Positions 1,348 to 44,627 of a DNA stretch of 64,000 nt are shown piece by piece. Made by a program: the position numbers and the translations under genes. The stretch is from positions 1-64,000 of the forward strand of contig JAAFIV010000012.1 in NCBI GenBank assembly GCA_013298775.1, given 5' to 3'. The DNA comes from Ignavibacteria bacterium. GTDB lineage: Bacteria > Bacteroidota > Ignavibacteria > Kapaibacteriales > UBA4661. Below the pieces are notes generated by a model that saw only the letters and a list, made by a program, of their open reading frames with translations, was not told where the DNA came from and ran no database searches. The stretch's first letter is position 1. Every line of letters starts with the position of its first letter.

Positions 1348-1373
1348 GCCGTCAGGCGGCTGTTATCACCAGC
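1348..1373. repeat. Fragment of repeat family E
   Basis: The stretch GCCGTCAGGCGGCTGTTATC and the following CACCAG resemble one end of the family E elements at 6941-7050 and 44463-44570. It abuts the family A element that follows. Confidence 0.45.
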
Positions 1374-1380
1374 ACATTGG

Positions 1381-1487
1381 TAACGCGGATTTTGAGGACT
1401 GAAGAGGACTTTTGAGGACATCATTGATACATTCAAACCAAGTTAGAGTCCTGACCAGTCCTCAAAAGTCCTCAAAATCCGCGTTCC
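1381..1487. repeat. Palindromic repeat family A, copy 1
   Basis: The left arm begins AACGCGGATTTTGAGGACT and the right arm is AGTCCTCAAAATCCGCGTT in reverse sense, separated by a spacer containing CTGACCAGTCCTC. The right boundary, CGCGTTCCCTGACGAAT, is identical to that of the copy at 4594-4745. It can fold into a long hairpin. It lies between the sensor gene and hlyD and codes for nothing convincing. Confidence 0.85.
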
Positions 1488-1628
1488 CTGACGAATTCAC
1501 TTTATCGGCTACCATTTTCCTTGAATTCTCCCCCACAAAACAATCTTTTGCCTCGCTATTCGTTATTGACAATAGATTTATCTTTGTCGCACCAAAGCGG
1601 CACCTACACTCCATTTTCGCATTGCATT

Positions 1629-4583: not shown

Positions 4584-4593
4584 ACATCATTTG

Positions 4594-4745
4594 TAACTGG
4601 TCAGGTTCTTGATGCAGGAACGCGGATTGTGAGGACTCAAGAGGATTGTGAGGACTCAAGAGGATTGTGAGGACTCAAAAAAATTAAATACGCCAAAGTC
4701 CTGACCAGTCCTCAAAAGTCCTCTCAATCCGCGTTCCCTGACGAA
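4594..4745. repeat. Palindromic repeat family A, copy 2
   Basis: It begins AACTGGTCAGG and then AACGCGGATTGTGAGGACTC, with the 19-base unit GAGGATTGTGAGGACTCAA repeated in tandem in the left arm. The right arm is CTGACCAGTCCTCAAAAG through TCAATCCGCGTTCCCTGACG. The right end matches copy 1. It sits between tolC (+) and the DUF2127 gene (-), which converge, so it may also serve as a transcript end. Confidence 0.85.
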
Positions 4746-4783
4746 TGAACCGACCATCTGCCATCATCCGCAACCCCGCGCCA

Positions 4784-5266
4784 TCACACAGTTTTCACCT
4801 GTTCCGCTTCTTCTTTTTTTCGCAGCATCCGCCACAAGTACACCACAATCGCCGTATTCGCGCAAATCACGAGAACCTTGACAATACTAGGCTTGTGAAT
4901 GAGATGATAGATTTCAAGCGGTATCAGGGATGCCGTTGCCACGACCATAAACCACTCCGCCCATCGCTGCTCGAAATACACGCCAACGCCTTCAATCCAC
5001 AACACCACCGCATACACGAGTGCTAATATTCCTGTTGATTTTACGCTGTCGCTCGACAAAAATTCCTGTAATTTGTGCAGCAAAAACGTGTAAATTTTCC
5101 CGTGCGGCAGCATAAGTTCGTCGTTCATCCAGTGAATAAGCGCGTCCATCCACGCATCGCGGCTCTCCAAAAACACCAGCGAAACACCGATAAACAACAA
5201 ACCAAAACCTTTGATAATTTTATAGACCGCAATCGTGCGGAGATAAGGGTTTTTGTGCATAGTCAT
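4784..5266 (-). CDS. DUF2127-family integral membrane protein
   Basis: About 160 aa with four predicted membrane segments: IKGFGLLFIGVSLVFL; STGILALVYAVVLWIEGVGV; the stretch around WFMVVATASLIPLEIYHL; and VLVICANTAIVVYLWRML. The motif EGVGVYFEQRWAEWF with PLEIYHL is characteristic of DUF2127. The function is unknown. The start is set at MTMHKNPYLRTI (5266, or 5260). The same frame stays open to 5488, but those extra 74 residues are a translated family C repeat (the PHPTLSQRER and RPLGEGLAQRG stretches are typical of such repeats) and are rejected. The gene is monocistronic and faces tolC. Confidence 0.75.
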   Translation of the reverse strand: MTMHKNPYLRTIAVYKIIKGFGLLFIGVSLVFLESRDAWMDALIHWMNDELMLPHGKIYTFLLHKLQEFLSSDSVKSTGILALVYAVVLWIEGVGVYFEQRWAEWFMVVATASLIPLEIYHLIHKPSIVKVLVICANTAIVVYLWRMLRKKEEAEQVKTV

Positions 5267-5310
5267 TATGAAAAAGTGTGGAATGAAGCGGTTTCTGGGA
5301 TTGATAATGA

Positions 5311-5455
5311 ACTCACCTTCCGCACACCCTCGCGCTGCCCTCACCCCTCGCTGCGCGAGACCCTCTCCCAGAGGGCGAGGGTTGATGGAGACCAGCTCTG
5401 AAGCCCTCTCCCTCTGGGAGAGGGTTGGGTGAGGGTCTTGTGCGTAAGGTGAGTA
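5311..5455. repeat. Repeat family C, copy 1
   Basis: It is bounded by ACTCACCTTCCGCACA on the left and TGTGCGTAAGGTGAGT on the right, a near-perfect terminal inverted repeat. Inside are two hairpins of the CCCTCTCCC...GGGAGAGGG type. It lies immediately upstream of the DUF2127 gene and extends that reading frame artificially. Confidence 0.9.
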
Positions 5456-5504
5456 ATGAAGAATCAACGCCCCGTACAAATGTAACATTTTTGCGAAAGA
5501 AATT

Positions 5505-5675
5505 GTACCTGGTCAGGTCATGATTTTTTTTGACGCAGATTACCATGATTTCCATGATTCTCGCAGATGAAGACAGAGAAAAAAGATGTACTAAAAGATG
5601 TACTATTTATTCTGCTCTGAAATCCTCTTCATCATGGGAATCATGGAAATCTGTGTTCATCAATCTGACCAGTGA
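5505..5675. repeat. Palindromic repeat family B, copy 2
   Basis: It starts ACCTGGTCAGGTCATG and then TTTTTTTGACGCAGATTACC. The arms carry the phased ATGATTTCC/ATGATTCTC motif, mirrored on the right by ATCATGGGAATCATGGAAAT and CTGTGTTCATCAATCTGACC. The CTGGTCAGG/CTGACCAG ends are shared with family A copy 2. The spacer has a short direct repeat, AAAAGATGTACT. It precedes the ECF sigma gene. Confidence 0.8.
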
Positions 5676-5760
5676 CAAGAAATCTTTGCAAATGAATATT
5701 TTCCGCCCCGCACTTGTCTAATCCATACAGTTTCCCAAAACGCCCTCAACACCAGTATTC

Positions 5761-6331: not shown

Positions 6332-6475
6332 ACTCACCTTACGCACAAGCCCCTCACCCAACCCTCTCCCAGAGGGAGAGGGCTTCAGATCTGGTCTCCA
6401 TCAACCCTCGCCCTCTGGGAGAGGGTCTCGCGCAGCGAGGGGTGAGGGCAGCGCGAGAGTGTACGTAAGGTGAGG
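6332..6475. repeat. Repeat family C, copy 2 (inside the sigma cluster)
   Basis: It is bounded by ACTCACCTTACGCACAAG and GTACGTAAGGTGAG. The interior is close to the reverse complement of copy 1 (the CAGAGGGAGAGGGCTTCAG and GGTCTCCATCAACCCTCGCC blocks). It separates the ECF sigma and anti-sigma-like genes. Confidence 0.9.
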
Positions 6476-6907: not shown

Positions 6908-6940
6908 GGAAAAGGATAAACGTAACGGATGAGGTCTTTC

Positions 6941-7050
6941 TCGTCGGACGGCTGTTAGCACCAGTTCAGTAGCCGTCCGGCGAGTGTCGTGCAAGCGACG
7001 CACCCGCCAGACGGCACTGTTTCTTCACTCCTCAGCCGCCAGACGAGACG
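6941..7050. repeat. Repeat family E, copy 1
   Basis: It contains TCGTCGGACGGCTGTTAGCA, AGTAGCCGTCCGGCGAGTG, CAAGCGACGCACCCGCC and CACTCCTCAGCCGCC. The copy at 44463-44570 is the same element in inverse orientation. The CCGTCCGG and GGACGG blocks allow several stems. It lies between the anti-sigma-like and Spy-like genes. Confidence 0.88.
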
Positions 7051-7107
7051 TGAGCAGTTACAAATACAAGTAAAAAAGCCATTTTTCACACACTACGCAT
7101 ATATGCA

Positions 7108-43140: not shown

Positions 43141-43299
43141 CTCATCTTACGCAAGCCAAGCAATACCGCCCTCACCCAACCCTCTCCCAGAGGGAGAGGG
43201 CTTCAGCATCTACTGCCTTTCTACCCTCGCCCTTTGGGAGAGGGTCTCGCGCCGTCTTCGGAGCGAGGGGTGAGGGATACGAGCGGTACGTAAGATGAG
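43141..43299. repeat. Repeat family C, copy 5
   Basis: The ends are exact inverse copies of 11 bases, CTCATCTTACG and CGTAAGATGAG. The interior has CAACCCTCTCCCAGAGGGAG and CGCCCTTTGGGAGAGGG stems. Its right end lies 40 bases before the VWA gene start. Confidence 0.92.
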
Positions 43300-44443: not shown

Positions 44444-44462
44444 AAACTGTTCAGTTCTTCCC

Positions 44463-44570
44463 GTTGGGCGGCTGAGGAGTGCAGATACGCTGCCGTCCGG
44501 CGGGTGGGTCGCTTGTACAGCACTCGCCGGACGGCTACTGTTCGTGTGATAACAGCTGCCCGACGAGAAG
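44463..44570. repeat. Repeat family E, copy 2 (inverted)
   Basis: It reads GGGCGGCTGAGGAGTGCAGA, GCCGTCCGGCGGGTGGGTCG, CACTCGCCGGACGGCTACTG and ends CAGCTGCCCGACGAGAAG, the reverse complement of copy 1 at 6941-7050 with scattered changes. Confidence 0.88.
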
Positions 44571-44627
44571 ATTCAACCTACAACACATCATTATCCCCCA
44601 CACCATTCTCAAGCAAGAGCAAACGCT

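What the first reader, a model, noticed from the sequence alone, without database searches (positions are those of the whole stretch)
4594..5675. Repeat families A and B share the same CTGGTCAGG / CTGACCAG boundary
The A element at 4594 starts AACTGGTCAGGTT and carries CTGACCAG in its right arm. The B element at 5505 starts ACCTGGTCAGGTC and ends with ATCTGACCAGTG. The interiors are unrelated in sequence but both are long palindromes built from short phased units. Common ends with different fillings suggest one mechanism that spreads or extends different palindromes.
Basis: partly seen in the sequence, partly recalled or inferred. Interest (0 to 1): 0.5.

Follow-up and report, generated by a model that had tools for sequence, protein, structure and literature searches.

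The report
IS66-type mini-transposons with swapped palindromic fillings
The two repeats share their ends because both are small hitch-hiking transposons of the IS66 type, and in this bacterial genus the same ends carry several different, mostly hairpin-forming fillings, so ends and fillings look interchangeable.

Summary
The shared boundary is real and is a transposon end. In the window's genome CTGGTCAGG occurs 171 times (reversed control 33) and GTAACTGGTCAGG 109 times (control 1). Of 100 places read, 45 elements pair by their ends alone (GTAACTGGTCAGGT, inverted); 22 of 45 have exact 8-bp flanking repeats, 32 of 45 at most one mismatch (random pairing 0.1% and 1.2%). In sister genomes this end lies 21-35 bp beyond an IS66-family transposase C-terminus in 16 of 16 loci. 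A (4593-4761, right end decayed) and B (5505-5676) are thus non-autonomous IS66-type MITEs. A's CTGACCAG at 4701 is inside the filling, not its boundary. 'Common ends, different fillings' holds: 85 elements carry at least six filling classes, 78 of 85 strongly hairpin-forming, none matching the known parent pieces. Fillings A and F also occur inside other ends, so ends and fillings behave as modules. How fillings are swapped is inferred from a few nested elements. No IS66 transposase was found in the window's own assembly. A known kind of element; interchangeable fillings are unusual.

The parts
4585..4592 (.). left target-site duplication of element A (CATCATTT)
   Evidence: right copy CATCATCC matches 6 of 8
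4593..4606 (+). left terminal inverted repeat of A, GTAACTGGTCAGGT, exact
4607..4747 (.). class A palindromic filling (GGAACGCGGATT + GAGGACT units)
4701..4708 (+). CTGACCAG internal to the A filling (AGGACTGGTCAGGA on the other strand); not a transposon end
   Evidence: this loop form is 12 of the 100 places read
4748..4761 (-). likely right terminal inverted repeat of A, decayed (5 of 14 mismatches, at the offset from the core seen in other A copies)
4762..4769 (.). likely right target-site duplication of A (CATCATCC)
5497..5504 (.). left target-site duplication of element B (AAGAAATT)
5505..5518 (+). left terminal inverted repeat of B, GTACCTGGTCAGGT (1 mismatch)
5519..5662 (.). class B palindromic filling (CATGATTTCC units)
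5663..5676 (-). right terminal inverted repeat of B, ATCTGACCAGTGAC (2 mismatches)
5677..5684 (.). right target-site duplication of B (AAGAAATC, 7 of 8)
6922..7061 (.). third, decayed element with class C (REP-like GTCGGACGGC) filling; ends with 3 and 2 mismatches, flanks do not match
1349..1496 (.). class A copy with a piece of class C filling on its left; no left end recognised
44456..44573 (.). old class C filling; no end within 3 mismatches remains

Best explanation
A and B are non-autonomous miniature transposons (MITEs) of the IS66 family, probably of the single-ORF ISBst12-like sort. What they share with the parent IS, as far as it is known, is only the 14-bp end GTAACTGGTCAGGT. A pair of these ends in inverted orientation is inserted, with whatever lies between, into AT-rich 8-bp targets, which are duplicated. 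What lies between is variable: at least six classes of filling, mostly about 80-175 bp, all but one class (J) strongly palindromic. Shown: ends, target duplications, copy number, several fillings per end, two fillings (A, F) each also found beside a different flanking sequence at a fixed distance, and the link of the end to an IS66 transposase in sister genomes. Inferred: that such a transposase moved the copies in the window's genome, whose assembly gave no match to it, and that fillings are swapped when another palindromic element inserts into an existing one and the older filling is later lost.
For: Ends and 8-bp duplications, right end chosen by end sequence alone: 22/45 exact and 32/45 with at most 1 mismatch in G000; 28/34 and 32/34 in sister genomes. 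With the looser pairing, which also looked at the flanks: 23/49 and 35/49, against 0.1% and 1.2% for flanks of different elements; frames shifted by 1, 2, 3 or 8 bases give none at 0-1. Transposase: 16 of 16 loci with the C-terminus carry the end with 0-2 mismatches, 21-35 bp beyond the matched stretch; NCBIfam NF033517 'IS66 family transposase' E 3.5e-15 and 9.3e-8 on the two TIR-linked fragments given (56 and 31.5 bits, below the whole-protein cut-off of 180); PF03050 E 1.3e-6 on the G001 fragment, over its cut-off. A published ISBst12-group IS66 element, ISDge4, has ends GTGACTACTCAGCA / GTAACTGCTCAGCA and an 8-bp repeat (passages of PMC12898284). Different fillings. Palindromic: 78 of 85 with folding z <= -3, 30 shuffles each. 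A filling beside two different flanking sequences; F filling likewise. Nested element with its own CATTT duplication, L201.
Against: No IS66 transposase was found in the window's own genome. No full-length parent IS was recovered: the TIR-linked pieces stop at a contig end, are broken or are short relics. Two shorter TIR-linked pieces (45 and 46 aa) gave no Pfam match, nor did two fragments of 30 and 42 aa. 13 of 45 elements have 2 or more mismatches in the duplication and 7 of 45 have 4 or more. 25 of 100 places read have no right end within 2 mismatches. The swap route rests on a handful of nested examples, and insertion sites show no preference for palindrome centres.
Confidence: 0.9

Rival explanations
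1. The elements are ordinary internal-deletion derivatives of one parent IS, and the fillings are diverged remains of it.
For: This is how MITEs are generally thought to arise (passage of PMC3189936). Ends match those of the parent.
Against: 85 fillings against 12 pieces of the parent and its relatives (3,015 bases in all, redundant) give only words of 9-15 bases, best E 0.004, while diverged parent pieces from different genomes still find each other (e.g. E 3e-10 and 5e-9). Fillings A and F occur beside other flanking sequences.
Confidence: 0.06
2. One ancestral MITE diversified in place: the end and a short subterminal stretch are inherited, and the interior changed by expansion and contraction of short phased units, with the arms kept complementary by gene conversion.
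For: A, B and E share ACGCRGAT inside the end (4/4, 5/14 and 38/40 arms, 0.07% in shuffles). Some C and D arms both begin CTTCYCGTC. Elements with one C-like and one D-like arm occur in G002 (by eye).
Against: C/D, F, G and J arms lack the A/B/E motif (0 of 94, 0 of 10, 0 of 2 and 0 of 6). Fillings A and F sit beside unrelated flanking sequences too. It probably explains variety within the A/B/E and C/D groups, not between groups.
Confidence: 0.3
3. CTGGTCAGG is a host motif (regulator site, Chi-like site or terminator part) that decorates palindromes, not a transposon end.
For: The motif also occurs unpaired and in the A loop.
Against: Fixed 14-bp ends with exact 8-bp direct repeats just outside them and adjacency to a transposase gene; 7 of 61 genomes searched have the 13-mer, with high numbers only inside the genus.
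Confidence: 0.01
4. REP/REPIN-type elements moved by a RAYT tyrosine transposase, with the IS66-like ends a coincidence.
For: Class C is a pair of small GC-rich hairpins in inverted orientation, like REP doublets (by eye).
Against: 8-bp duplications are not expected from IS200/IS605-type tyrosine transposases (recalled, not tested here). The same ends carry non-REP fillings.
Confidence: 0.02

Closest known systems
IS66 family, ISBst12 group (example ISDge4 of Deinococcus geothermalis, PMC12898284, passages)
   Same: End GTAACTGCTCAGCA against GTAACTGGTCAGGT (11 of 14), 8-bp direct repeat, IS66-type transposase in sister genomes.
   Different: The window's elements carry no gene; their fillings do not match the known pieces of the IS.
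Bacterial MITEs (RUP, NEMIS, MITEPsy1, MITECca01; passages of PMC3733652, PMC3189936, PMC9769881)
   Same: Short, no coding capacity, inverted ends like those of a parent IS, target duplication.
   Different: A MITE family normally has one interior (recalled), as the second MITE-like family of this window does (22 of 22 with one interior motif). Here one pair of ends carries at least six, and two interiors also occur beside other flanking sequences.
REPINs and CGTC/GTAG-tagged REPs (PMC3733652, abstract and passages)
   Same: Inverted doublets of small GC-rich hairpins (class C, D); [quoted passage not shown]
   Different: Class C carries IS66-type ends and 8-bp duplications. Its CGTC is part of the paired arms, not an unpaired tag (judged by eye).

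Membership tests
IS66-family MITE | 8-bp target duplication | tested here: met
   22/45 exact, 32/45 with at most 1 mismatch; sister genomes 28/34 and 32/34; controls
IS66-family MITE | ends beginning GTAA, inverted at both sides | tested here: met
   GTAA starts of IS66 ends in passages of PMC12898284 and PMC12888890
IS66-family MITE | same ends on an IS that encodes an IS66 (PF03050/NF033517) transposase | tested here: met
   16/16 loci in G001, G002, G004, G005; family matches of fragments; only partial or broken copies
IS66-family MITE | transposase present in the same genome | tested here: not met
   0 matches in G000, by Pfam and by protein; the assembly is 95 contigs and may lack collapsed repeats. 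Not strictly required, as a MITE can outlive its parent
ISBst12 group | single transposase ORF, no tnpA/tnpB | tested here: inconclusive
   An ORF starts about 41 bp inside the left end (L097); its N-terminus weakly matches a gene annotated 'transposase IS66' in one Leptolyngbya plasmid (23 aa, 69.6%, E 0.2); no full-length copy
MITE | short, no transposase gene inside | tested here: met
   100-352 bp, too short for a transposase gene
MITE by internal deletion of the parent | interior derived from the parent IS | tested here: not met
   best filling-parent match E 0.004 over 13 bases; part of the parent unseen
REPIN / CGTC-tagged REP | unpaired CGTC or GTAG tag beside a small hairpin, associated with RAYT or no transposase | tested here: not met
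   CGTC lies in the paired arm (by eye); ends and duplications are IS66-like. RAYT genes were not searched for

The most novel reading that the evidence does not exclude
In this Ignavibacteria genus, IS66-type ends act as an interchangeable shell for palindromic repeats: fillings move between transposon families with different ends (8-bp against about 4-5-bp duplications), so palindromes without a transposase of their own spread by borrowing successive shells. This would be a general way for bacterial intergenic palindromes to outlive any one transposase.
Probability: 0.4. Interest if true: 0.7.

Novelty: new variant of a known kind. Interest (0 to 1): 0.5.

Why it matters
Many bacterial genomes hold palindromic repeats for which no mobilising enzyme is known. 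[quoted passage not shown] Here is a genus where several kinds of palindrome have transposon ends, target duplications and an identifiable transposase family, and where two kinds occur beside more than one set of flanking sequences. That makes it testable whether palindromes are passengers that switch vehicles.

Tried and rejected
Insertion into palindrome centres as the cause of nesting: empty sites of 35 elements with a clean duplication show inverted-repeat scores like control positions (median 5; control mean 4.7; two of 35 above the control maximum of 7); rejected as a general rule.

Avoidance of genes: 12 of 21 usable insertion sites lie in an open frame of at least 450 nt, control 44%; uninformative, no claim made.

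First pairing of ends used the flanks when choosing the right end, which favours matching flanks; I recounted with ends alone and use that count first. The class, folding and filling counts still rest on the 85 elements of the first pairing.

Another shell for filling A searched genome-wide with one exact pattern: 0 hits. The pattern was stricter than the copies are, so the S3 shell rests on the first 30 of 67 class-A places. The S3 and S4 motifs were chosen by eye from the same loci on which they were counted; what is independent is their fixed offset, their absence from arms with the IS66 end, and for S4 its presence in two genomes. 15 of 30 class-A arms and 12 of 29 class-F arms passed neither threshold. 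L277 (G023, a lone match) was dropped before the F count.

Pfam on 30- and 42-residue fragments: no match; too short. IS66 proteins of order-level relatives give no meaningful match to the N-terminus.

Literature searches: IS66 + MITE + ends, Ignavibacteria + palindromic + repeat, IS66 family + GTAA, bacterial MITE + nested (none), repeated palindromic + MITE (none), IS66 + MITEs + nonautonomous (none), REPIN/RAYT, IS66 + miniature inverted, MITE + mosaic. Nothing in the listings, or in the passages read from six of the papers, describes an IS66 MITE family with several fillings; the library holds only open-licence papers.

Full report
WHAT WAS CHECKED. The genome that holds the window (G000, 5.19 Mb, 95 contigs) has CTGGTCAGG 171 times against 33 for the reversed pattern, and GTAACTGGTCAGG 109 times against 1. 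The tool listed 100 of the 171 places; I read those 100 and none of the other 71.

WHAT THE BOUNDARY IS. Pairing ends by sequence alone (right end within 2 mismatches, within 400 bases), the 100 places give 12 copies of the A-loop motif AGGACTGGTCAGG (or AGGGCT...), 45 elements, 25 ends without a partner, and 18 second ends of counted elements. The full end is GTAACTGGTCAGGT. Just outside the paired ends the flanks repeat over 8 bases: 22 of 45 exactly, 32 of 45 with at most one mismatch, 7 of 45 with four or more. A first, looser pairing that also used the flanks gave 49 elements, 23 exact and 35 with at most one mismatch. Flanks of different elements match that well in 0.1% and 1.2% of cases, and shifting the frame by 1, 2, 3 or 8 bases leaves no element at 0 or 1 mismatch. 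The duplicated targets are AT-rich (27% G+C in 35). In sister genomes 28 of 34 paired elements have exact duplications and 32 of 34 at most one mismatch. This is the signature of transposed DNA; a regulator site would not show it.

WHICH TRANSPOSASE. GTAA ends with 8-bp duplications point to the IS66 family. ISDge4, an IS66-family element of the ISBst12 group, has the ends GTGACTACTCAGCA and GTAACTGCTCAGCA and an 8-bp repeat (passages of PMC12898284); two IS66 elements of Paracoccus are tabulated with 8-bp repeats (passages of PMC3281130). In sister genomes contigs break inside elements that start with the same end and continue into a transposase. A search of 10 genomes with its C-terminus gave 16 loci in 4 genomes. 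All 16 carry the end 21-35 bp beyond the matched stretch: 11 exactly, 2 with one mismatch, 3 (all in G001) with two. The query was a join of two sister fragments. Two TIR-linked fragments match the NCBIfam IS66 transposase model (E 3.5e-15 and 9.3e-8, bits below the whole-protein cut-off), and one of three matches PF03050 (E 1.3e-6). The window's own genome gives no IS66 match, so its copies are orphans or the parent is missing from a fragmented assembly.

THE TWO ELEMENTS OF THE FINDING. B is 5505-5676 with AAGAAATT/AAGAAATC outside. A is 4593-4761: exact left end, a right end decayed at 5 of 14 positions but at the expected distance from the core, and CATCATTT/CATCATCC outside. The CTGACCAG at 4701 is the A loop motif. 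A third, decayed element lies at 6922-7061; its flanks do not match.

DIFFERENT FILLINGS. Over the 85 elements of the first pairing (49 in G000, 36 in other genomes), motif classes are C/D (GTCGGGCGGC or CCGTCCTACGC hairpins) 47, E (GATGAAGATGAT) 20, B (CATGATTTCC) 7, F (CACGAATCGCACGAAT) 5, J 3, A 2, G 1. Six classes, all but G, include elements with at most one mismatch in the duplication. Sister species favour different fillings: in the stretches read, E in G005 (17 of 17 paired elements), C/D, F and J in G002 (10, 4 and 2 of 16). Folding of the fillings alone is far below dinucleotide shuffles (z <= -3) in 78 of 85; the 7 exceptions are 2 of 3 J elements, 1 E, 3 C and L001. Fillings do not match the known pieces of the parent. 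A, B and E share ACGCRGAT inside the end, so they are probably one lineage. By contrast the second MITE-like family of this window (ends CTCACCTTACGCAC) carries the same interior motif in 22 of 22 paired elements from 30 loci.

FILLINGS IN OTHER SHELLS. Of 30 class-A arms (from 30 of 67 places), 10 have the IS66 end within 4 mismatches at offset 21-22, 5 have a different sequence (ATGATTCTTGAATTACG-like) at offset 18, none both, 15 neither; shuffles give 1% and 0%. Of 29 class-F arms from G000, G002 and G007 (29 of the 30 loci returned for 139 matches), 10 have the IS66 end within 4 mismatches, 7 have a GMGAAAYAAYTCAT shell at offset 29-30, none both, 12 neither; shuffles give 2% and 0.07%. 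The F shell seems to have a shorter, about 4-5-bp, duplication (by eye), which would mean a different transposase. Both second-shell motifs were chosen from the same loci.

HOW FILLINGS MIGHT BE SWAPPED (inferred). Nested elements are seen (by eye): a palindrome with CACAGACA...TGTCTGTG arms inside A (L012), D (L014) and E (L199, L201) elements; in L201 it has its own CATTT duplication. A B element sits in an F element (L142) and another in an A element (L156). If the older arms are later lost, the outer ends are left around a new filling. The copies show the nesting, not the loss. A general preference for palindrome centres was tested and not found.

DISTRIBUTION. The 13-mer end occurs in 7 of 61 genomes searched: 5 of 8 of the genus (own included; 109, 63, 55, 7 and 4 places), one pair in the same family, one single match elsewhere. 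A scan of public genome contigs with the intact pair found 7 loci, all from one Ignavibacteria metagenome assembly, JAAFHM01, whose coordinates coincide with G002; the window is thus from the same genus. Records near the window's own genome may be left out of that scan.

VERDICT. Established: IS66-type non-autonomous transposons. Well supported: several fillings per end. Supported by part of the copies: two fillings in more than one shell. Inferred: the swap route and the trans-acting enzyme in this genome. Score 0.5.

Noticed in passing
window 5312-5453, 6333-6474 and 43141-43299: A second MITE-like family with ends CTCACCTTACGCAC and a CCCTCTCCCAGAGGGAGAGGG interior, mostly 142 bp, with short flanking repeats (e.g. 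TTATGAA, AACTTCA); 37 exact ends genome-wide against 0 in the control.
   Followed up: partly
L028, L044, L053, L075, L077, L080 (contig ends of G000 C4, C9, C12, C28, C28, C32): Six contigs end inside a class C or C-like element at one of two recurring junctions (CCGTC|TATTAGGTTTG, three; CCGCCCGA|TTTCTATGG, three), as if another multi-copy IS inserts at one fixed point of the REP-like palindrome; L227 of G002 carries a sequence that looks like a remnant of it.
   Followed up: no
L085 (G009), L087, L218, L226 (G002): An AT-rich filling (J; 202-bp elements) with IS66-type ends, little hairpin potential in two of the three paired copies, found in two genera.
   Followed up: no
L234 (G005:C11): A relic with the IS66-type end, a 100-aa C-terminal frame and a 36-nt match to the other end of the parent: possibly a classical internal deletion derivative.
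   Followed up: no
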